In this document: positions 55,949 through 64,000 of the stretch, piece after piece
How the letters are laid out: every line of letters starts with the position of its first letter
Position numbering within the stretch: the stretch's first letter is position 1
Position numbers and translations under genes: made by a program
The notes under the pieces: model-generated
What the model saw: the letters and a program-made list of their open reading frames with translations, nothing else
Database searches by the model: none
What the model was told of the DNA's origin: nothing
Origin: Roseburia sp.
GTDB taxonomy: Bacteria; Bacillota; Clostridia; Lachnospirales; Lachnospiraceae
Length of the DNA: 64,000 nucleotides
Direction of reading: 5' to 3'
Assembly (NCBI GenBank): GCA_017937095.1
Contig: JAGBEG010000022.1
Location: 122,983 to 186,982 of the forward strand

Positions 55949-56038
55949 TTCATCTTCCTCCTCTATCCTGCTATTAGTAATTTACACCAATAATACCGGA
56001 AAGAACAGACGGAGGTTTCATTTTTTTCCAAAAAAAAG

Positions 56039-56061
56039 AACCGGTTTCAGTGAAACCGGTT
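56039..56061. terminator. Bidirectional terminator
   Basis: AACCGGTTTC pairs with GAAACCGGTT around AGT, flanked by U-runs on both strands. It ends the small membrane protein gene. Confidence 0.8.
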
Positions 56062-56075
56062 AAAACATCTGCGAT

Positions 56076-56261
56076 TTACGCAATACTTCCCAAAGCTGTC
56101 AGAAGCAGCAATCCTGCTGCAATTCCCACTATGTAGAGAATCCTTCTCCCCATTCCCATCTCACTGCCGTGCTTTTTCTGATAGCTCTTTGCGATTGGCA
56201 GATTCGTGAGCAGCACAGCTATAATTACCGGCAGTGCCAGATACCCAATAATGTACGCCAT
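56076..56261 (-). CDS. Small two-helix membrane protein
   Basis: 61 residues with two hydrophobic segments (IIGYLALPVIIAVLLTNL and ILYIVGIAAGLLLLTALG) around a basic middle. The start has GTAGGAGG. It follows the toxin-immunity unit but has no obvious link to it; it may be the end of that operon. The family is not recognised. Confidence 0.65.
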   Translation of the reverse strand: MAYIIGYLALPVIIAVLLTNLPIAKSYQKKHGSEMGMGRRILYIVGIAAGLLLLTALGSIA

Positions 56262-56332
56262 TTTCTTTCCTCCTACTTTTATAAGTCCTAACGGGAGTGA
56301 TTATAGCATATTGTAGTTTGATGGTCAATGGG

Positions 56333-56779
56333 TTAAATATACTGCTCTATTTTTTCTATTTCTTCCGGCAACATTTTTTGCACCGAAAACCATTTCGATT
56401 TTTTATAATTCTCAATCCAGTCTGTTTCTCCCTCTAAAACATTTTTCCATTTATTTGCCAACCCATTCGCAATAATAATGATATTATTGCGAACCATGTT
56501 TTCTGCCCCCTCTCCGCCAAGAAGATTGACTCTGTCGTCTGCATCATACTTTTCTGCAAAGAAATTATCACAGGAATACAGTTTTGTCTCTTTACCATCC
56601 TTACATAAATAAGAAACCGTCGCCTCAAATCTGTCTATCGCGATAATTAACGCATATTTCTCACCTACTAATGCGGTTTTTAACGGTGATATCTTAATAC
56701 AAGCCAATTTGTACTTTTCACAAATTCCTTCCATATATAAAGGTATATCTTCGTTGATTTTCGTCCATATGTTTTCCAC
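56333..56779 (-). CDS. Probable immunity protein of the first LXG-type toxin
   Basis: 148 residues, acidic, soluble, with no signal peptide. It begins 11 bp after the toxin gene stop, the standard place of a cognate immunity gene. Visible text such as SPLKTALVGEKYALIIAIDRFEATVSYLC and ENMVRNNIIIIANGLANKWK (each split blocks) suggests an alpha/beta fold, but I do not recognise the family. Immunity is inferred from position only. Confidence 0.65.
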   Translation of the reverse strand: MENIWTKINEDIPLYMEGICEKYKLACIKISPLKTALVGEKYALIIAIDRFEATVSYLCKDGKETKLYSCDNFFAEKYDADDRVNLLGGEGAENMVRNNIIIIANGLANKWKNVLEGETDWIENYKKSKWFSVQKMLPEEIEKIEQYI

Positions 56780-56790
56780 TGTTTCAACTC

Positions 56791-58515
56791 CTATTTGCTC
56801 ATTGTTTTTGTTATTGGATCATATTTATATCCATGCTGCCTTAAATAGTTATATTCCCTGCCAAATCCTGTCAGTTCTGTTTTTCCTGTAATCTTATTGA
56901 TCCGGGTAAGATTATCCCATGTTGGTTCGGTTGCAATTTTAATGATATCATCTCTCGCAATGACATTGTCCAGCCATGGTTTATTATACTCGTTCCAGAA
57001 TTGGTCGGGCGTAACATATAACTCATCCGGCGTGTTCAATAAATTAAATCCGCCGTCCCGCGGTCCAAAATCCAAAGACTTCACATTTCCAAGCTCATCG
57101 AGTATCGCCCCGGTATCTTTGTTATATGTTCCTAATACGGTCGTTGTCTTCCCCGGTGTTGCTTCCAGTTCCAGACCGTTTGACGTTATATAATCTAACT
57201 TTGTCTTTACACCTGCCGCATCTGTTGCTATATCCGCCTTTTTTGCCGCTTCTGCTGCATCCGTTACCGCATCCGTCGCCTTATCGACCTGCTTGACCGC
57301 TTCCGCTGCATCCGCCGCCCTATCTGCCGTCCTTGCTGCATCGGACGCCGTGTCTGCCGCATCCGCAAGCTTCTCCACATTTTTGACTGCTCCCGCTGCA
57401 TCCGCCGCCCTTGCCGCATCAGACGCCGTGTCTGCCGCATCCGCAAGCTTCTCCACATTTTTGACTGCTCCCGCTGCATCGGATGCCGTGTCCGCCGCTT
57501 TGGCTGCTCCCTTTGCGCTGCCAAGTCCCTTTGTTGCAACCACCTCTACGATGATATCCAGGCTGATGTAGCCTACCGCATATGCCATGCCTTCCTCTTC
57601 ATAGGTATCGGTCATGCTCTGCCCCATCGCCTCTATGACGCCCATCGGATCTGTGACTATGGCTTCTATTCCTGCCTCCATTCCGGTGACCCGCGCTTCA
57701 AGCGGCGCCGGCAGCGGAATGAACCGGGCGCCGGGCGTACTCTCATAGAGAAGGAACAATGCCAGCGAAAACACACCGTCCAGCAGATCTACTGTCGCAT
57801 CCCATAGACCTCGTCCAAAATCTTTGATTCCTTCTCCGAGATCCTCAAGCTTGTTCAAAAACGTTCCCCATGTGTCATAGTAAAAACGCGCCTGACATGC
57901 ATAATCATCGTCCGTGTTCTCGAAAGGTACAATCGCCTGATTATAAATATCCCAGATTGCAGATACCTCATCACAAAAGACCTCATATGCCGCATTTACA
58001 CTGACGGTGCGAAAATTCGCCAGCTTATCATAGTTCCGCTCTCTCCTTCTTTGCTCCGCCTCCTCCTGCGCCCTTATGGCTCTTGTTTCCTCCGACCACC
58101 AGTCCAGCCTAAAATGCTTATAATCCGGGAAAGAACTTCCCGTATCCCACATGAAGTCAAAGACTTTCGTGACTCCGCTCTCAATCTGTGTGATATTCCA
58201 CCAGATATCATTCCGGTCCACACGCATCATCACGCTTTCGCTCTCAGGAGCCACATACGCTTTCATATCAGCAATGTAGCCGGACAACATCGTCTTCACA
58301 AGTCCGAGACGTTCCCCGATTTCTCCTATGTATCCTATGACATCTTCTTCCCATTCCTCTGACAAGGTCTGATAAGACACACTGTCCTGTTTTTTCAGTA
58401 CCGAGAGGAATGTCGTACATGCTGCTTCCAGACGATTGACCCGATCGAGATATCCTTGTATGGAGTCTAACGTATCGGACAAATGCCCCATGTTAAGCTT
58501 CAGGTCTCTTTTCAT
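56791..58515 (-). CDS. LXG/T7SS-type polymorphic toxin 1
   Basis: 574 residues. Residues 1-170 are helical, an Esx/LXG-like secretion region (GHLSDTLDSIQGYLDRVN, later WWSEETRAIR). 175-345 is the scaffold shared with the second toxin: RRRERNYDKLA, IVPFENTDDDY, LGEGIKDFGRGLWDATVDLL, RVTGMEAGI, DPMGVIEAMGQSM, DTYEEEGMAY and TKGLGSAKGA. 345-450 is an Ala-rich repeat region of A-A-D-T-A-S-D-A units. The last ~100 residues are unique (TPDELYVTPDQFWNEYNKPW ... TELTGFGREYNYLRQHGYKY) and should be the toxin, perhaps a nuclease, but that is not shown. It starts 14 bp after its partner gene. Confidence 0.8.
   Translation of the reverse strand: MKRDLKLNMGHLSDTLDSIQGYLDRVNRLEAACTTFLSVLKKQDSVSYQTLSEEWEEDVIGYIGEIGERLGLVKTMLSGYIADMKAYVAPESESVMMRVDRNDIWWNITQIESGVTKVFDFMWDTGSSFPDYKHFRLDWWSEETRAIRAQEEAEQRRRERNYDKLANFRTVSVNAAYEVFCDEVSAIWDIYNQAIVPFENTDDDYACQARFYYDTWGTFLNKLEDLGEGIKDFGRGLWDATVDLLDGVFSLALFLLYESTPGARFIPLPAPLEARVTGMEAGIEAIVTDPMGVIEAMGQSMTDTYEEEGMAYAVGYISLDIIVEVVATKGLGSAKGAAKAADTASDAAGAVKNVEKLADAADTASDAARAADAAGAVKNVEKLADAADTASDAARTADRAADAAEAVKQVDKATDAVTDAAEAAKKADIATDAAGVKTKLDYITSNGLELEATPGKTTTVLGTYNKDTGAILDELGNVKSLDFGPRDGGFNLLNTPDELYVTPDQFWNEYNKPWLDNVIARDDIIKIATEPTWDNLTRINKITGKTELTGFGREYNYLRQHGYKYDPITKTMSK
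57344..57480. repeat. 78-bp tandem repeat in the Ala-rich region of toxin 1
   Basis: A 59-bp block starting GACGCCGTGTCTGCCGC is identical at 57344-57402 and 57422-57480, one 78-bp period apart (26 codons). Confidence 0.85.
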
Positions 58516-58529
58516 GATTTCTCCTGCCT

Positions 58530-58739
58530 CTATTCAAATGATAAGCCATCCAGCTCCGAAATCTTAGCAGCACACTCCGCCTTTATAGCATCCACGTGTT
58601 CCTGCACCTTCGTTCTCTTATCAGCATTTTCGAAATCCATGTCGGAAAACTCTTTCTCTGCCATCTTCTCTATATCTGTAAAAACCTGTTTATATTTTTC
58701 TCTTTTTGCGCAGGCATCCGATTGGCTTAACTCACCCAT
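58530..58739 (-). CDS. Small helical partner of the LXG-type toxin
   Basis: 69 residues, all predicted helix (KREKYKQVFTDIEKMAEKEF). The ATG at 58739 has GGAGGGAGGA before it and overlaps the end of the upstream Esx-like gene by 8 bp; the toxin starts 14 bp after it. This is the position of small alpha-helical chaperone or co-secretion partners of LXG toxins (Lap-type). Family assignment is by position and fold only. Confidence 0.7.
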   Translation of the reverse strand: MGELSQSDACAKREKYKQVFTDIEKMAEKEFSDMDFENADKRTKVQEHVDAIKAECAAKISELDGLSFE

Positions 58740-59046
58740 TTCCTCCCTCCAGTCTGTTCTGGTCATGCGCCTCGTCCGTTGCCTTAAGGCGCTTCATAAT
58801 TGTCTCGGCATCGCCGCAAAATCCCTCCAAATGCTCCATCATATCTTTGGAATACCATCCCGGAAAACGTTTCAGAATGTCGGAAAGCGGACCGATAAAA
58901 TCGGAATTCATCGGCTCCATATTCTCACAATCCACCTGAAACGCGCTGCTGCCCGCATCGCCAAAGTCCTTTGCCGCGCTTCTCATCTCAGAGAGCGCTT
59001 CTTCCACTTCCGTATAATCCACGTCAAGTTTATCGCCTTCTGCCAT
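58732..59046 (-). CDS. WXG100/Esx-like partner protein
   Basis: 104 residues, helical hairpin type: VDYTEVEEALSEMRSAAKDF, a turn, then DAETIMKRLKATDEAHDQNR. The W-x-G turn is not exact (GWYSKD). It heads the toxin 1 operon, and T7SS toxins need such a protein for export. No secretion-machine gene (EssC, YukD) is in the window. Confidence 0.75.
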   Translation of the reverse strand: MAEGDKLDVDYTEVEEALSEMRSAAKDFGDAGSSAFQVDCENMEPMNSDFIGPLSDILKRFPGWYSKDMMEHLEGFCGDAETIMKRLKATDEAHDQNRLEGGNG

Positions 59047-59242
59047 TCACTCCTCCTTCTTCTTTTATGCTCTATGATATCCTTTTCTCATTTCTATGAC
59101 AATTAAATGCCACTTCCCACATATCATAGCAGAAGTACGAAAGCTAACAACGTCGAAATTTGTAGGAAAGTTCTATAAATGTATACCTGCTGCTTACACC
59201 TGCCCATACGCAGGCGAGAAGCTGTCTGGTTCTTTGATTTTC

Positions 59243-59929
59243 TTACTGCATTGAGTAATGAGCCAGATCGTATGGATAATATGACACATCTTTCAAACTA
59301 CTGTCATCCAGATTTAATATTTTAGCAATTGCGCCTGCTTCAAAGCTCCAATATCCATAGTATATATTTTGTTTACTTTTATGAGCTTCATAACATCCGC
59401 AATCTTCATTATACCAATCATCCGATAGATATTTCTTCAATGCCTGTAATTTATTTTCCTGATACACTACTTTCTGCAGATTGGAAAACGACTTAGGAAA
59501 AAGCATTTCTTTTCTCTCTTCGATCGGTTCATCGCCCAACGCATCCAGCAAATAATATAATAGTCCGTCGTATATTTCTGATTTTTCCAACATGTCTTTC
59601 ACTTTTTTCGCAAAATCTTTATCTGCTCCGAAAAGAACTCCCAAAGAAACCATCTTAAGATTCTTATTATAATATTCCGGTTCCCATACTTCCTCCCATC
59701 CGGACGCCAGCTCAAAGTATTCCTTCTTCAATTCGGCTAATTCATCCCCTCTTGAATACTTCGCTATCAGTATTCCGAGTTTTAAATCATGCACTTTAGA
59801 CTTTACAGGAAATATTCTTTCTGCCTTTACCTCTCCGCTTTCCAGTTTTGACGAAAACTTTTTTATTCTTTCTGAATCTTCATGTATAAATTGATTAAAA
59901 TATTCTACATTTTTTAAATGATCTCTCAT
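59243..59929 (-). CDS. PoNi-type immunity protein (DUF1910/DUF1911)
   Basis: 228 residues from the ATG at 59929 (AAAGG upstream; earlier ATGs at 59962 and 59935 are possible). The C-terminal FEAGAIAKILNLDDSSLKDV and YYPYDLAHY pattern is DUF1911, and the N-terminal helical half fits DUF1910. These proteins neutralise PoNe-type DNase toxins. No PoNe toxin is next to it, so it is an orphan immunity gene in this array. Confidence 0.82.
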   Translation of the reverse strand: MRDHLKNVEYFNQFIHEDSERIKKFSSKLESGEVKAERIFPVKSKVHDLKLGILIAKYSRGDELAELKKEYFELASGWEEVWEPEYYNKNLKMVSLGVLFGADKDFAKKVKDMLEKSEIYDGLLYYLLDALGDEPIEERKEMLFPKSFSNLQKVVYQENKLQALKKYLSDDWYNEDCGCYEAHKSKQNIYYGYWSFEAGAIAKILNLDDSSLKDVSYYPYDLAHYSMQ

Positions 59930-60020
59930 ATCCATGCCTTTCATAATTTGAGACACATGCATCGCACCGACATTGCTCCAAGGTCAATTTCGCCTATTAC
60001 ACACAGCTCACAATCTGCTC

Positions 60021-60377
60021 CTAATAACTGATCTGACGCTTTTCCATATCATAATATCCTCTACCCATGATAATATTTAAATCTGCAATATATTTTGTAT
60101 ATTCATTTCCCAACTCAATTTTTACTTCATTTTCAACTTCTTCTGTCATTAACTGTTTTAGTTTCTCTATTATTTTATTAAAATCTAATTCCTTTTCTGC
60201 ATAACTCAGTGACAAAAAAATATGAATACAAATATTTTCTATCTGACAAAAATCTTCTCCATGTTCATATTCGTTTAAAACGGCAGGAAAAATCTGTTTC
60301 TCATTAAATCCCATTTTATAAAACCGTTCAAAATCTTCCTCCACACATTCTTTTAATTCATCATATTTAAAAACCAT
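60021..60377 (-). CDS. Imm3-family-like immunity protein
   Basis: 118 residues. The N-terminus with ELKECVEEDFERFYKMGFNE, then FPAVLNEYEHGEDFCQIENI and the late GRGYYDME fits the Imm3 family as I know it. It follows a 3' toxin remnant (60431-60553) by 53 bp, which is the expected layout toxin-then-immunity. Its toxin is now only that remnant. Confidence 0.7.
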   Translation of the reverse strand: MVFKYDELKECVEEDFERFYKMGFNEKQIFPAVLNEYEHGEDFCQIENICIHIFLSLSYAEKELDFNKIIEKLKQLMTEEVENEVKIELGNEYTKYIADLNIIMGRGYYDMEKRQISY

Positions 60378-60430
60378 TTTTCCCTCTCTATTCTACAAAT
60401 ACATTTATTCTATATAAATTATAACTACAA

Positions 60431-60553
60431 TTAATGTTCTGAATATTTTTCTTCTGATGTTGTACCACCCGCTTCACCTTCCACTTCTGGTTCACTTGCT
60501 TTTTTGCCGCATAGGAGATCCCTATCACCGGATATTTTAAAATGTGTTGTGAC
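60431..60553 (-). pseudogene. 3' end of a lost toxin gene
   Basis: An open stretch of 41 codons ends VEGEAGGTTSEEKYSEH-stop and starts directly after the stop of the preceding immunity gene (60557), with no start codon or ribosome-binding site. Its 3' part lies upstream of the Imm3-like gene, so it is probably the tail of the toxin that Imm3-like protein once served. Confidence 0.5.
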
Positions 60554-60556
60554 CTT

Positions 60557-60973
60557 CTACCCCTTTATTTCTGAAATCCATTCTAAAAATACTTCTCCCG
60601 CATTCTTTCCCGTTTTTGCTGAGCACACTTCCTCATATTTGTATTTTGCATCATACTTTCCTGATTCTACATCATAATACAACTTCATCTCAGTTGGAAT
60701 CGGCATATTATGTTTTGTACAAATAGCGTTGACTTTCTCTAAATCTTCTGTACCAATCTTTAAAAATTGAAATGCCAACTTATTCGGCACTCCTAATTGG
60801 TTTAATGTCTTTATTTCTCCATTCACATCAAAAAAAGCATTAAACATTTTACTCTTTTCTTCATTAGAACAGTATGCATAAACTTTGCTGATTTTTTGTC
60901 CCGCTACTTCTATACATAGTGATATGAATGCTGATTGCAAATCCATAAACTCATCTTCAAATACTTTATTCAT
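60557..60973 (-). CDS. YezG/DUF600-like immunity protein
   Basis: 138 residues. AAAAGGAG lies 9 bases before the ATG at 60973. The text VYAYCSNEEKSKMFNAFFDV, then PTEMKLYYDVESGKYDAKYKYE fits the YezG/DUF600 immunity family of LXG toxins. The reading frame is open further upstream into a toxin stump, so a longer fusion protein is possible, but the internal start has the strong site. Confidence 0.75.
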   Translation of the reverse strand: MNKVFEDEFMDLQSAFISLCIEVAGQKISKVYAYCSNEEKSKMFNAFFDVNGEIKTLNQLGVPNKLAFQFLKIGTEDLEKVNAICTKHNMPIPTEMKLYYDVESGKYDAKYKYEEVCSAKTGKNAGEVFLEWISEIKG

Positions 60974-61202
60974 TCCTTTACTCCTTTTTACTACATCCGG
61001 CAGCGATACGGTTCCCGAAAACACAAAACCGCCAAACATAAGATACAACGCCAGCGAAAACACTCTGTCCACCAGATCGACTATCACATCCCAAAGACCT
61101 CTTCCCAAGTTCTTGATTCCTTCCCCAAGGTCTCCAAGCTTATTACCGGTCGTCGCCCACATATCATACCAGAAACGCGCTTCCTGTGAATAATCATCCG
61201 TC
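60974..61202 (-). pseudogene. Toxin stump A
   Basis: About 77 codons of the shared toxin scaffold (DDYSQEARFWYDMWATTGNK ... FGGFVFSGTVSLPDVV) end in the immunity gene leader without a stop, at the same codon as stump B. Upstream of 61202 the similarity to the intact toxin 2 stops at once. No start codon with a site is present. Everything beyond LPDVV, including the toxin domain, is missing. Confidence 0.75.
61086..61178 (-). repeat. 93-bp scaffold repeat, copy A
   Basis: By eye it differs from copy C (63644-63736) at 2 of 93 positions and from copy B (61799-61891) at about 6. It codes for WYDMWATTGNKLGDLGEG and following residues. Confidence 0.85.
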
Positions 61203-61211
61203 AATGGATAA

Positions 61212-61352
61212 TTACCCCCGAATAAACTTATACCATGGCGGTACGTCGCCTAGTAATACAGCACTATTTAAAGTGACAAATCGAAAGTCGGCGATATTCC
61301 AAAAACTTTTAGGTTTAAGAAATATCGCCAATACTATATTTTTTCTAGTCAT
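61212..61352 (-). CDS. 46-codon ORF, probably the end of an immunity gene
   Basis: MTRKNIVLAIFLKPK ... FVTLNSAVLLGDVPPWYKF, then stop 10 bp before stump A. Only a weak AAGGGA lies 15 bases before the ATG. The aromatic, hydrophobic C-terminus looks like part of a folded immunity protein, so it may be a broken gene rather than a true small protein. Confidence 0.4.
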   Translation of the reverse strand: MTRKNIVLAIFLKPKSFWNIADFRFVTLNSAVLLGDVPPWYKFIRG

Positions 61353-61474
61353 CAAGAGAATTTATTTCCCTTATACCCTCTGGCAAGTGCCATTATAACA
61401 TGCACTATGTAAATCGTCGCTAGAATTATTAAAAAATATTTTCAATACCAGAATTGCTACTTCTCTGCTATCAA

Positions 61475-61687
61475 TTAAACATCACTATATGCTTGATTTA
61501 TGTTATCATATACTTTATTCCCATTTTCCAGCATCTTACTTATTATTTTCTGTTCTAATTCCTCATCCGATATTAATAACATAGATTGTTCTTTTTTATC
61601 TACAATACCATATCCAAAATCTGTTTTCACAAGAACAAAATCTGCTTTCTTTTCATTCCATAAATATGAATAATTCTCTATGCTCAT
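61475..61687 (-). CDS. Small putative immunity protein fused behind stump B
   Basis: 70 residues (NEKKADFVLVKTDFGYGIVD ... SDEELEQKIISKMLENGNK). Its ATG overlaps the stop of the stump (ATGA) and GGAG lies 10 bases before it. It occupies the immunity position. The family is not recognised; function by position. Confidence 0.6.
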   Translation of the reverse strand: MSIENYSYLWNEKKADFVLVKTDFGYGIVDKKEQSMLLISDEELEQKIISKMLENGNKVYDNINQAYSDV

Positions 61688-61893
61688 ACTTTTCTATCTC
61701 CTACTACATCCAGGCGCGATACGGTTCCCGAAAACACAAAACCGCCAAATATAAAATACAACGCCAACGAAAACACTCCGTTCAACAGATCAACCACCGC
61801 ATCCCAAAGACCTCTTCCCAAATTCTTGATTCCTTCCCCGAAGTCTCCTAGCTTATTACCGGTCATCGCCCACATATCATACCAGAAACGCTT
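61684..61893 (-). pseudogene. Toxin stump B
   Basis: About 69 codons of scaffold (WYDMWAMTGNKLGDFGEGIK ... FGGFVFSGTVSRLDVV), then stop. It breaks off at the same codon (DVV) as stump A, and its other edge lies at about 61893, where unrelated sequence begins. There is no usable start. Confidence 0.75.
61799..61891 (-). repeat. 93-bp scaffold repeat, copy B
   Basis: Direct repeat of 61086-61178 and 63644-63736 with about 6 differences from copy A. A and B additionally share roughly 95 bp on the side of the immunity gene (60991-61085 and 61704-61798), which toxin 2 does not share. Confidence 0.85.
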
Positions 61894-61916
61894 TAGTGGA
61901 AAGCTGGACTGTTACC

Positions 61917-62390
61917 TTAAAATAGCTTTATTCCATATTCTTCTTGACATACATGATTGAATCTCTGTATTTCATCCCATGCGCTTTTTTTTAAAAATCC
62001 ATCTGGATACACTATTCCTTCCTTTATTTTATCTGCTCTATTGTTTATTTCATTTCTTAATCTCGGTAAGATATGTGACATATCCATCTTGAACGGTGAT
62101 ATTTCGTTCTTTTCTTTAAACAACTCACTCATGATGTATAATATTACTATGTATACGTCATAATCTGTTTTTCCAAGCATAACCAGTAATGTTTCTTCAA
62201 TTTTTTCTTTTATGCTTAAATCTTTCTTATATGCTTTATACACCACTTTTGATAACATTTTACCAACATCTGTAGGTTCTGCGCTTGGTACATATTGTGA
62301 TGTTTCCAATTTATATTTTCCCTCACCCTTCAACAACCTTTCTAACTCATGCTTTTTTATTGCTTCAAATATCATATCTGTATATTCCAT
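61917..62390 (-). CDS. Probable immunity protein of toxin 2
   Basis: 157 residues, helical, charged, no signal peptide (YKAYKKDLSIKEKIEETLLV, ILYIMSELFKEKNEIS). It starts 13 bp after toxin 2, so it is the likely cognate immunity protein. The family is not recognised. Confidence 0.65.
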   Translation of the reverse strand: MEYTDMIFEAIKKHELERLLKGEGKYKLETSQYVPSAEPTDVGKMLSKVVYKAYKKDLSIKEKIEETLLVMLGKTDYDVYIVILYIMSELFKEKNEISPFKMDMSHILPRLRNEINNRADKIKEGIVYPDGFLKKSAWDEIQRFNHVCQEEYGIKLF

Positions 62391-62403
62391 AATATTCTCC
62401 CAT

Positions 62404-64000
62404 CTAATTTATTTCTGTTATTGTAATATTGTCAGATATATTAGGTATTAAATCTGTTACCGCTTCTGGAATCCCTCCATCAGTTTTTCCGCCAGGAATC
62501 CAATGACTATTTGCACCATATTCATTCCCAGATGGCATTCTTAGTTCTAATCCACTCAAATCATCAATATCTATTCTTACAAGTCCACCACCATCATCGA
62601 AATGTCCTATATCAAATCCCAGCTTAGATTCATATATGCTAATATCTCCATTTGCTATGTTAGCAATCTCATCGCAGTAATTCTTTGGCATAACAAATTG
62701 TGTGCCATCATCAGGTATTCCAATATAACTATTTCCTTTAACATATTGCACATATTGTTCTTTTGTCATAATAATCGATGCACCATCATCAAATTGTGCC
62801 AAATGTGCATCAATATATTCTTGTGTCAAATACATTAACGGATCTGGTCTACTTCCTTTGGGCATAGAAACAATTTGATCTATTAATTCTTGTGTCAATC
62901 CTGATTTTAAACTGCTCTCAACCTTCGGCACATCTATATCCACATTCTGTAGATCATCAAGAAATTCCTCATACTCCACGTCCACATATCTTTGCTGTTC
63001 ATATATATCGTCATAAAACTTTTCAATTTCATCCAACACATCATCTACATGGTTCGGTGGCATATTATTTACAACCGTATCAGCCTTTTTCGCCGCACTC
63101 GCCGTATCTGTTACCGTATCTACTTTCTTCGCCGCTCCCGTTGCATCCGAAACCTTATCTGCTGTCTTTGCTGCATCTGTCACCTTATCCGCAGTTTTCG
63201 CCGCATCCGTTACTGTATCCACTTTCTTTGCTGCGCTCGCCGCATCGGTTACTGTATCTACCTTCTTCGCTGCTCCTGCAACATCGGTTACCGTATCTAC
63301 CTTCTTTGCTACACTCGCCGCATCGGACGCCGTATCTGCCACTTTGGTTGCTCCCTTCACGCTTCCGAGTCCCTTTGTACCCACAACCTCTATGGCGATA
63401 TCCGGAACAAGATAGCCTGCCGCATAAGCAATCCCTTCCTCTTCGTAGGTGTCCATCATGCTCTGTCCCATCGCCTCGACGACAGCCACCGGATCGGTAA
63501 ATATAGCTACTATTCCATCCTCCATGCCAGTCACGCGCTCTTCCGCCCAGTCTGGCAGAACTACATGCTCATTCCGCGGAATACACCCGTCCACCACGAG
63601 GAACACCGCCAATGAAAACACTCCGTCCAACAAATCGACCGCCGCATCCCAAAGACCTCTTCCCAAGTTCTTGATTCCTTCCCCAAGGTCTCCAAGCTTA
63701 TTACCAGTCGTCGCCCACATATCATACCAGAAACGCGCATCCTGTGAATAATCATCATCCGTATTCTCGAAAGGCACGATTGCATTATTATAAATGCTCC
63801 ATATCTCATCTACCTCATCACTGAATATTCGAAATGCACTGCTGACACTGCCGCTGCGAAAGCCTGCCAGTTTGTCGTAATTCCGCTCACGCCTCCCTCT
63901 CTCCTGCTCTTCTGCCAGACGGATTGCCGCTGCATCCTTGGAAAACCAGTTGATAAAAGGATGCTTATAATCCGGGAATGAGCTTCCCGAATCGCAGCAG
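62404..64000 (-). CDS. LXG/T7SS-type polymorphic toxin 2, 5' end beyond the window
   Basis: At least 531 codons; the frame is open to the edge. The visible start (DSGSSFPDYKHPFINWFSKD, then RRERNYDKLAGF and IVPFENTDDDYSQ) aligns with toxin 1 from about residue 125 on. The scaffold continues with RVTGMEDGI, DPVAVVEAMGQSMMDTYEEE and TKGLGSVKGA, then 12-13-residue repeats (TDAASAAKKVDTV type), and a unique ~220-residue C-terminal domain ending LRMPSGNEYGANSHWIPGGK and GGIPEAVTDLIP. That domain should be the toxin; the activity is not known to me. Confidence 0.82.
   Translation of the reverse strand, partial: CCDSGSSFPDYKHPFINWFSKDAAAIRLAEEQERGRRERNYDKLAGFRSGSVSSAFRIFSDEVDEIWSIYNNAIVPFENTDDDYSQDARFWYDMWATTGNKLGDLGEGIKNLGRGLWDAAVDLLDGVFSLAVFLVVDGCIPRNEHVVLPDWAEERVTGMEDGIVAIFTDPVAVVEAMGQSMMDTYEEEGIAYAAGYLVPDIAIEVVGTKGLGSVKGATKVADTASDAASVAKKVDTVTDVAGAAKKVDTVTDAASAAKKVDTVTDAAKTADKVTDAAKTADKVSDATGAAKKVDTVTDTASAAKKADTVVNNMPPNHVDDVLDEIEKFYDDIYEQQRYVDVEYEEFLDDLQNVDIDVPKVESSLKSGLTQELIDQIVSMPKGSRPDPLMYLTQEYIDAHLAQFDDGASIIMTKEQYVQYVKGNSYIGIPDDGTQFVMPKNYCDEIANIANGDISIYESKLGFDIGHFDDGGGLVRIDIDDLSGLELRMPSGNEYGANSHWIPGGKTDGGIPEAVTDLIPNISDNITITEIN
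63080..63330. repeat. ~39-bp tandem repeats in toxin 2
   Basis: Units like GTTACTGTATCTACCTTCTT plus CGCTGC recur about six times with variation, encoding TDAASAAKKVDTV and TDAAKTADKV units. Confidence 0.75.
63644..63736 (-). repeat. 93-bp scaffold repeat, copy C (inside intact toxin 2)
   Basis: Nearly identical to copy A (2 differences) and close to copy B. The matching part of toxin 1 (about 57806-57900) is clearly more diverged, so A, B and C share a recent history. Confidence 0.85.

What the first reader, a model, noticed from the sequence alone, without database searches (positions are those of the whole stretch)
59243..64000. Array of immunity-only cassettes built by recombination on a toxin scaffold
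Beside an intact LXG-type toxin lie two toxin stumps. Each is cut at the same codon (…LPDVV / …RLDVV) and joined directly to a different immunity gene. Both carry a 93-bp scaffold segment nearly identical to the intact toxin. Further along are an orphan PoNi-like gene, an Imm3-like gene with a toxin tail, and a 46-codon remnant. Orphan immunity arrays are known for polymorphic toxins; what looks new is the fixed joint that deletes the toxin domain but keeps scaffold homology, which would let cassettes be swapped with the expressed toxin.
Basis: partly seen in the sequence, partly recalled or inferred. Interest (0 to 1): 0.8.

Follow-up and report, generated by a model that had tools for sequence, protein, structure and literature searches.

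The report
Orphan immunity genes on toxin stubs
In a gut bacterium two unrelated antitoxin-like genes each sit right behind the same leftover piece of a toxin gene, a variant of the known habit of keeping old antitoxins, and between them lies an unnamed RNA-like element that also turns up behind antitoxin genes in related bacteria.

Summary
The core observation holds. Two truncated pieces of an LXG-like toxin scaffold (60989-61198, 61702-61890) are 90.5% identical over 190 bp. They lose homology at the same GTAGTA codons and meet the start codons of two unrelated small genes 14-15 nt later. An orphan PoNi is real. The Imm3 call is weak; 'toxin tail' and '46-codon remnant' have no support. In Roseburia hominis a toxin with the same hinge (FGGFVFSGVVSLPDEV) continues uninterrupted to its C-terminus beside PoNi, so the stumps look like deleted scaffolds. 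A 112-bp tract of stump 1 is 98% identical to the neighbouring toxin, then breaks, which fits recombination. Crossing over there would delete the toxin, not swap it. No second strain was available, so 'fixed joint' rests on two copies in one genome; one deletion, duplicated, with the immunity gene replaced, is the best reading. This is a variant of known displaced-module arrays. Newer is element E between the cassettes (61272-61425): a conserved, partly promoter-like sequence plus a covarying hairpin, with no Rfam family. It recurs in other Lachnospiraceae, starting within 58 bp of the end of an upstream gene, often an immunity gene, in 17 of 20 placeable strong copies.

The parts
62404..64000 (-). 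Toxin A: LXG-like scaffold plus unknown C-terminal domain; 5' end missing because the contig ends here
   Evidence: ORF of 531 aa open at 5'; contig C19 is 186,982 bases and ends at window base 64000; 62% identical to toxin B residues 124-431
61917..62390 (-). immA, presumed cognate immunity gene of toxin A (157 aa)
   Evidence: position directly after toxin A; a 3'-end fragment of a homolog lies 10 bp after the immB homolog in another genus, L035:13217-13339; no credible Pfam family
61702..61890 (-). Stump 2: scaffold fragment, 5' truncated, homology ends at GTAGTA; its ORF ends at 61684 overlapping the imm2 start codon (ATGA)
61475..61687 (-). imm2, presumed orphan immunity gene (70 aa) by position, 14 nt after the joint
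   Evidence: no Pfam; found in 1 of 62 genomes of the genus, its own
61272..61425 (-). Element E: conserved, partly promoter-like sequence, then a covarying hairpin and T-rich tail; 15 copies aligned from Lachnospiraceae
   Evidence: no Rfam family
60989..61201 (-). Stump 1: scaffold fragment, 5' truncated, homology ends at GTAGTA; reading frame runs on into imm1
61163..61190 (-). Promoter-like site in stump 1 (TTCACA-16-TATGAT with TG), also in toxin A at 63721-63748
   Evidence: at least one such site in 10.5% and two in 2% of 200 shuffles; the two sites are homologous copies, so weak
60557..60973 (-). imm1, orphan immunity gene of the YezG/EsaG-like kind by homology (138 aa), 15 nt after the joint
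   Evidence: 42% identical to the protein directly after a full toxin with an Endonuclea_NS_2 domain in L032; that protein matches YezG-like PF04634 at its cut-off; imm1 itself has no Pfam hit
60388..60528 (-).
   Evidence: no match
60021..60377 (-). Imm3-like ORF (118 aa), weak assignment
   Evidence: PF14425 E 0.0031, 18 bits, cut-off 25
59243..59962 (-). Orphan PoNi immunity gene; a 115-bp stretch near its 3' end (59256-59370) is 83% identical to the R. hominis PoNi
58530..59046 (-). Two small ORFs (104 and 78 aa) in front of toxin B, in the position of LXG partner genes; no credible family match
   Evidence: the partner role is recalled
56791..58515 (-). Toxin B, complete LXG-like toxin (574 aa)
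   Evidence: the same C-terminal domain occurs on another scaffold in another genus
56333..56779 (-). immB, cognate immunity gene of toxin B by conserved pairing
   Evidence: 60% aa identity to the gene after the same C-terminal domain in L035

Best explanation
This is an array of retained (orphan) immunity genes downstream of an LXG-like toxin gene, built by successive displacement of toxin-immunity modules. An older toxin with the R. hominis-type hinge lost the rest of its scaffold and its toxin domain in one deletion that ended just before the ribosome-binding site of its immunity gene. The stub plus RBS was then copied and its immunity gene replaced, so two diverged stubs now precede two unrelated immunity genes. 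The stubs are not under strong protein selection. They act as short untranslated or translationally coupled leaders and are incidental recombination tracts with the neighbouring toxin gene. The immunity proteins protect against toxins of kin: probably an EsaD-type nuclease for imm1 and a PoNe-type nuclease for PoNi. Shown: the anatomy, the common joint, the mosaic with toxin A, and a hinge toxin that runs on in R. hominis. Inferred: order of events, copying plus replacement, expression, and protection.
For: s1-s2 identity runs up to the joint and stops there. A hinge toxin uninterrupted to its C-terminus, next to PoNi, in R. hominis. The closest imm1 relative sits directly after a full nuclease toxin in L032; others follow an LXG toxin in L077/L078 and a scrambled toxin fragment in L033. 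Relaxed coding constraint: dN 0.077, dS 0.163 for s1-s2 against dN 0.18, dS 1.37 for toxin A-toxin B. Identity break between s1 and toxin A. Module exchange in this family: toxin B's C-terminal domain and immB on a different scaffold in another genus. Orphan modules with scaffold fragments in 3 of 25 Lachnospiraceae LXG regions. A published displacement model (PMC5361080, passages).
Against: No strain comparison was possible. A simple duplication predicts equal 5' ends, but the stumps start 21 bp apart with unrelated flanks, so a further truncation is needed. No source is known for the replacing immunity gene, and imm2 is immunity by position only. One search's counts are small (15 differences between s1 and s2), and over sites 22-112 the excess identity of s1 over s2 to toxin A is not significant (1 against 6 of 91, P 0.12).
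Confidence: 0.6

Rival explanations
1. The joint is a recurrent, sequence-directed breakpoint: immunity cassettes are inserted or toxins excised at the LPDxV codon of this scaffold, making swappable immunity-only cassettes.
For: Two of two stumps here break at the same codon. The break lies where scaffold variants rejoin after the variable hinge (alignment).
Against: n = 2 in one genome; the two stumps are paralogs, so they are not independent. The 5' ends differ. Fragments in L029, L032, L033, L089, L097 and L098 break elsewhere. None of the array ORFs scanned matches a recombinase.
Confidence: 0.12
2. The stumps are kept as promoter-bearing leaders: an extended -10 site inside the scaffold (WYD codons) drives the immunity genes independently of the toxin operon, which matters because element E would end read-through before stump 1.
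For: Of three minus-strand sites at 10 of 12 in 5.6 kb, the only two with TG before the -10 are this site in stump 1 and its copy in toxin A. Stump 2 keeps TGGTATGAT although truncated. Element E has a terminator-like hairpin.
Against: Promoter-like sites as a whole are not in excess (25 found, 18.0 +/- 4.2 in shuffles). 10.5% of 200 shuffles hold at least one TG site of this score. The site is fixed by codons in toxin A. The T-run after the E hairpin in the window is weak (sequence).
Confidence: 0.2
3. Plain decay: two independently truncated orphan modules whose joints coincide by chance.
For: Decayed scaffold fragments occur in other such loci. One of the two R. hominis hinge toxins is broken.
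Against: A coincidence to the codon, in a scaffold of more than 300 codons, with both breaks ending within 15 nt of a start codon is unlikely (inference).
Confidence: 0.15
4. Assembly artefact: repeated scaffold copies were mis-joined in this draft genome.
For: Contigs break inside the LXG-like N-terminus here and in R. hominis.
Against: The array is internal to a contig, the two stumps differ at about 10% of sites, and each junction runs into different sequence. Reads were not available.
Confidence: 0.05

Closest known systems
Orphan toxin/immunity modules of Rhs, CDI and LXG loci (Koskiniemi 2014, PMC3967940; Chatterjee 2021, PMC7790226)
   Same: Displaced 3' modules downstream of the main toxin gene, 5' truncated, keeping a scaffold stretch homologous to the main gene (passages)
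   Different: Those keep the toxin domain, so recombination can activate it; here the toxin domain is gone and the break is inside the scaffold, not at the toxin boundary
T6SS immunity gene arrays made by sequential effector displacement in Vibrio cholerae (Kirchberger 2017, PMC5361080)
   Same: Old effector lost, immunity gene kept and pushed downstream; arrays of unrelated immunity genes (passages)
   Different: Different secretion system; a shared codon joint between a scaffold stub and unrelated immunity genes was not in the passages seen
Tandem EsaG/TsaI immunity paralogs in Staphylococcus aureus (Garrett 2022, PMC9484751)
   Same: Immunity arrays beside a T7SS toxin; recombination reshapes the EsaG ones (passages)
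   Different: There one immunity family is duplicated and recombines; here unrelated genes share an upstream stub

Membership tests
LXG polymorphic toxins of T7SSb | LXG domain (PF04740) | tested here: not met
   No PF04740 match for toxins A and B; 1 of 9 scaffold relatives at E 0.035. Called LXG-like only
LXG polymorphic toxins of T7SSb | EssC of T7SSb in the genome | tested here: not met
   TIGR03928: best 102.6 bits against cut-off 778.4 in a 94.6% complete draft; absence not proven
LXG polymorphic toxins of T7SSb | Constant scaffold, exchangeable C-terminal domain with adjacent immunity gene | tested here: met
   Toxin B's C-terminal domain and immB on another scaffold in L035
LXG polymorphic toxins of T7SSb | Secretion and toxicity | not testable with these tools
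   -
Orphan immunity gene array | Immunity-family genes without a cognate toxin beside them | tested here: met
   PoNi and imm1 with no cognate toxin domain found next to them; imm2 and the Imm3-like ORF are not established as immunity genes
Orphan toxin/immunity module (Rhs type) | Toxin domain retained behind a scaffold fragment | tested here: not met
   14-15 nt between stump and next ATG
YezG/EsaG-like immunity (PF04634), imm1 | Family profile match | tested here: inconclusive
   imm1 none; its 42% homolog in L032 at the cut-off, 21.7 bits; the L033, L077 and L078 relatives do not match PF04634
YezG/EsaG-like immunity (PF04634), imm1 | Homolog sits beside an EsaD-type nuclease toxin | tested here: met
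   L032 toxin carries Endonuclea_NS_2, E 8.6e-29; one locus tested
Imm3 (PF14425), 60021-60377 | Score above curated cut-off | tested here: not met
   18 bits against 25
PoNi (PF08928/PF08929), 59243-59962 | Score above curated cut-offs | tested here: met
   117.4 and 111.3 bits
Element E as a known RNA family | Match in Rfam 15 | tested here: not met
   0 at gathering score for window 56000-64000; best sub-threshold E 1.1 in L037 and 0.13 in the window

The most novel reading that the evidence does not exclude
Element E is an undescribed cassette-punctuating RNA gene of Lachnospiraceae polymorphic toxin loci: its own promoter (best copies TTGAC[AG]-18-TGTTACAAT), a transcript of about 100 nt with a conserved 5' part (GGCACTCACCAGGGGGTATAAGGGGGAA) and a covarying terminator hairpin. 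It sits directly after immunity genes of unrelated families and is repeated after successive cassettes. It ends the immunity operon, and by giving unrelated cassettes a shared 3' flank, with the scaffold as the 5' flank, it could let modules be exchanged by ordinary homologous recombination and serve as a landing site for IS110 elements. In this window it separates the imm2 cassette from the stump1-imm1 cassette.
Probability: 0.3. Interest if true: 0.75.

Novelty: new variant of a known kind. Interest (0 to 1): 0.5.

Why it matters
It shows a way in which the dangerous half of a toxin module can be shed while its protection is kept and re-equipped. If element E marks the 3' end of immunity cassettes in many genera, it would give a sequence handle for finding orphan immunity genes with no known family, and a testable answer to how unrelated toxin-immunity modules in gut Lachnospiraceae come to be swapped at the same place.

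Tried and rejected
Same-joint copies elsewhere: of 62 genomes of the genus only the own one and R. hominis carry the scaffold at E <= 0.001; in wider samples 3 of 397 and 2 of 392, own genome included. Viral contigs: 5 scans, no relative or match. Plasmids: no DNA match, one 34% protein relative of imm1 in Kingella. Genome contigs: first scan nothing, second 9 loci, two of them the R. hominis ones.

A high-copy repeat as the source of E was rejected: one copy in the own genome. Rfam was rejected as a name for E. Chance nearness of E to gene ends was tested: 841 of 10,000 random positions on the same strands of the same loci lie within -5 to 60 bp of the end of an ORF of 70 aa or more, against 17 of 20 copies. 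A repeated block beside orphan genes in L032/L033 looked like a Bacillaceae intergenic repeat (recalled) and was left aside. Solved-structure searches gave nothing credible.
Full report
Where it is. The window is contig C19:122983-186982 of a 3.89 Mb draft genome (94.6% complete, 24 contigs). A genome of the same genus (G004) has two contigs of the same lengths and matches as a Roseburia hominis MAG, so the host is taken to be a Roseburia. The contig ends at window base 64000, inside toxin A. Two R. hominis contigs also end inside the same N-terminal region, probably an assembly collapse at shared sequence.

Anatomy on the minus strand, 5' to 3': toxin A (5' open), immA, stump 2, imm2, element E, stump 1, imm1, a 46-codon ORF, an Imm3-like ORF, PoNi. 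Then come two small ORFs, toxin B and immB. Pfam names only PoNi with confidence; Imm3 is below its cut-off. NCBIfam adds nothing useful.

The stumps. s1 and s2 align over 190 bp at 90.5%, and homology stops at GTAGTA in both. After it come AAAAGGAGTAAAGGA-ATG (imm1) and GGAGATAGAAAAGT-ATG (imm2). The stumps keep 70 and 63 scaffold codons, from around the TDDDY motif to the hinge. Both lack the N-terminal part, the second half of the pretoxin region, and the toxin domain. Their 5' ends differ: stump 2 starts 21 bp later in the scaffold, about 25 bp after the immA stop codon. In toxins A and B the hinge differs from the stumps. In R. hominis two toxins carry it: 'ALYLAFGGFVFSGVVSLPDEVEERVRG...' and 'ALYLVFGGFVFSGVVSLPDEVEERVKD...'. 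The first runs uninterrupted to its C-terminus and is followed by PoNi, but its 5' end lies beyond the contig and its C-terminal domain has no Pfam name; the second is broken. So the stumps look like pieces of a third scaffold allele with toxin-A-like sequence before the hinge.

Recombination. Stump 1 and toxin A differ at 2 of 112 sites and then at 9 of the next 38 (Fisher P = 7e-5); the longest exact runs are 61 and 32 bp. Over sites 22-112, stump 2 differs from toxin A at 6 of 91 and stump 1 at 1 of 91 (P = 0.12), so the tract is not decisive against stump 2. Coding constraint on the stumps is relaxed (s1-s2 dS 0.163, dN 0.077; toxin A-toxin B dS 1.37, dN 0.18). A crossover between toxin A and stump 1 would remove toxin A's C-terminal domain, immA, stump 2 and imm2. 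It would leave the secretion end fused to imm1, i.e. a disarmed locus (inference).

What the immunity genes are. imm1 is 42% identical to the protein encoded directly after a full toxin in Bacillus sp. RAR_GA_16 (L032), and 30% to one behind a scrambled toxin fragment in Pseudalkalibacillus hwajinpoensis (L033). The L032 toxin has an Endonuclea_NS_2 domain and its neighbour matches YezG-like at the cut-off; the L033, L077 and L078 relatives do not match that family. Relatives also follow LXG toxins in two Lachnospiraceae (L077, L078). Toxin B's C-terminal domain and immB are found together on a different scaffold in a third genus, where a 3' fragment of an immA homolog follows directly. imm2 has no relative among the loci compared; loci fetched later were not compared.

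How unusual is it. In 25 regions covering the 29 LXG matches found in 14 of 397 Lachnospiraceae genomes, and in 11 comparison loci that include the window's own (L006), I looked for scaffold fragments of the resident toxins; 27 of the 29 LXG matches served as queries. Fragments turned up in 6 of the 25 regions; one fragment each in L077 and L078 is the other LXG match there and not a stump. L089, L097 and L098 hold orphan fragments, most of them running on into a C-terminal domain. L029, L031, L032 and L033 hold fragments with other endpoints; L031's runs to the end of its contig. Of those that I read (L029, L032, L033; L078, L087, L089, L097, L098) none is joined to an immunity start codon as here. 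The search was at tblastn E 1e-4 with resident scaffolds only, so weak cases are missed.

Element E. The spacer before stump 1 matched intergenic DNA in loci of two other genera. A profile of the three found further copies, and a covariance model R1 from 6 copies found matches at E <= 1e-3 in 15 of 397 Lachnospiraceae genomes. A second model R2 from 15 copies was run on 219 genomes of the order: 4 had matches at E <= 1e-4, two of them not seen before. At E <= 1e-6 the two genome searches give 21 distinct copies. One (G312) has no readable gene upstream. Of the 20 others, 17 begin between 4 bp before and 58 bp after the end of an upstream ORF on the same strand; the rest are at 75, 133 and 185 bp. 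One of the 17 (G647) is only the hairpin half. Gaps were measured with the ends of whichever model found the copy, which differ by about 10 bp. Of 10,000 random positions on the same strands of the same loci, 841 lie that close to the end of an ORF of 70 aa or more. For copies not used to build the model that found them the count is 11 of 14. Weaker matches (E 1e-6 to 1e-3) were placed in only two cases: the second G282 copy (263 bp from the nearest ORF counted) and one more in G656 (17 bp); the rest were not examined.

The upstream proteins of 15 of the 17 were scanned. Nine match Pfam at E < 0.1: Imm26, SUKH-3 and SUKH_6 above cut-off, Imm59 twice below cut-off, DUF2247, DUF1871, ADP_ribosyl_GH and Tpt1/KptA. 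Six match nothing. That DUF2247, DUF1871 and ADP-ribosylglycohydrolases act as immunity proteins is recalled; Tpt1/KptA is not an immunity family that I can name. The two not scanned are in L143. L130 has three copies and L035 two, each after its own gene. The 185-bp case (L133) follows a gene that does not look like immunity.

On the 15-copy alignment, TTGAC[AG] is present in 6, TTGA in 10 and TGTTA[CT]AAT in 8; both boxes at 18 bp stand in 5 (L037, L127, L128, L129, L133), and the window copy keeps only the -10. So the promoter is a reading of the consensus. The hairpin is firmer: 10 of 12 pairs have changes on both sides, 89.8% of cells pair, no shuffle of 500 reaches these values, and slid versions pair at 35-49%; the structure was derived from the same alignment, which favours it in the slid control. 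Single-sequence fold z-scores for five copies are -3.6, -5.5, -1.9, -1.6 and -2.7. Downstream of E, eight copies share DNA that in the clearest cases (L130, L128) reads as the end of a convergent small gene (weakly DUF6809-like, E 0.033, in one of two tested). In L127, the second L083 copy and L143_9433 the DNA downstream is instead related to that in front of an IS110 transposase gene (IS110 named by Pfam in L127 only). The hairpin half of E occurs alone in L083, L099, L128 and L017, so a link of that half to IS110 ends is not excluded. Three literature searches listed nothing like E (listings only); subscription papers are not in that library.

Literature on the stumps. Listings of searches, and the passages seen, hold no description of toxin-less scaffold stubs sharing one joint. 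Seven papers were seen as passages only: PMC7790226, PMC10327511, PMC10765036, PMC9484751, PMC3967940, PMC5361080, PMC10539506.

Verdict. The stump array is real and a variant of known displaced-module immunity arrays; the 'fixed joint' is suggestive but rests on two paralogous copies. The toxin-swap function is not supported. Element E is the part most worth following.

Noticed in passing
window 61272-61425 (-); copies in L037, L035, L083, L089, L127-L134, L143-L146: Element E: uncatalogued, partly promoter-like sequence plus covarying hairpin, placed right after genes that are often immunity genes in Lachnospiraceae toxin loci.
   Followed up: yes
L127:9199-9356, L083:12579-12674, L143:9433-9589: DNA related to that in front of an IS110 transposase gene abuts the hairpin of E at the same place in three loci; E may be an IS110 target, or its hairpin half may belong to the IS end.
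   Followed up: partly
L130, L131, L132, L128, L143, L037, L035 downstream of E: Conserved DNA that in the clearest copies reads as the 3' end of a convergent small gene (..RMGMQCCFSLLMQLADL) about 20 bp past the E hairpin; it may form a shared 3' flank.
   Followed up: partly
window 59256-59370: A 115-bp stretch near the 3' end of PoNi is 83% identical to the R. hominis PoNi, while an earlier aligned stretch is only 30% identical in protein: the 3' ends look homogenised.
   Followed up: no
own genome G000: No EssC over cut-off in a 94.6% complete draft that carries two LXG-like toxin genes, so how they would be secreted is open.
   Followed up: partly
L035:13217-13339: A 41-codon 3' fragment of an immA homolog lies 10 bp after the immB homolog in another genus.
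   Followed up: no
L032, L033: Bacillaceae loci with orphan toxin and immunity fragments; L032 has a 171-bp block repeated three times among them.
   Followed up: no
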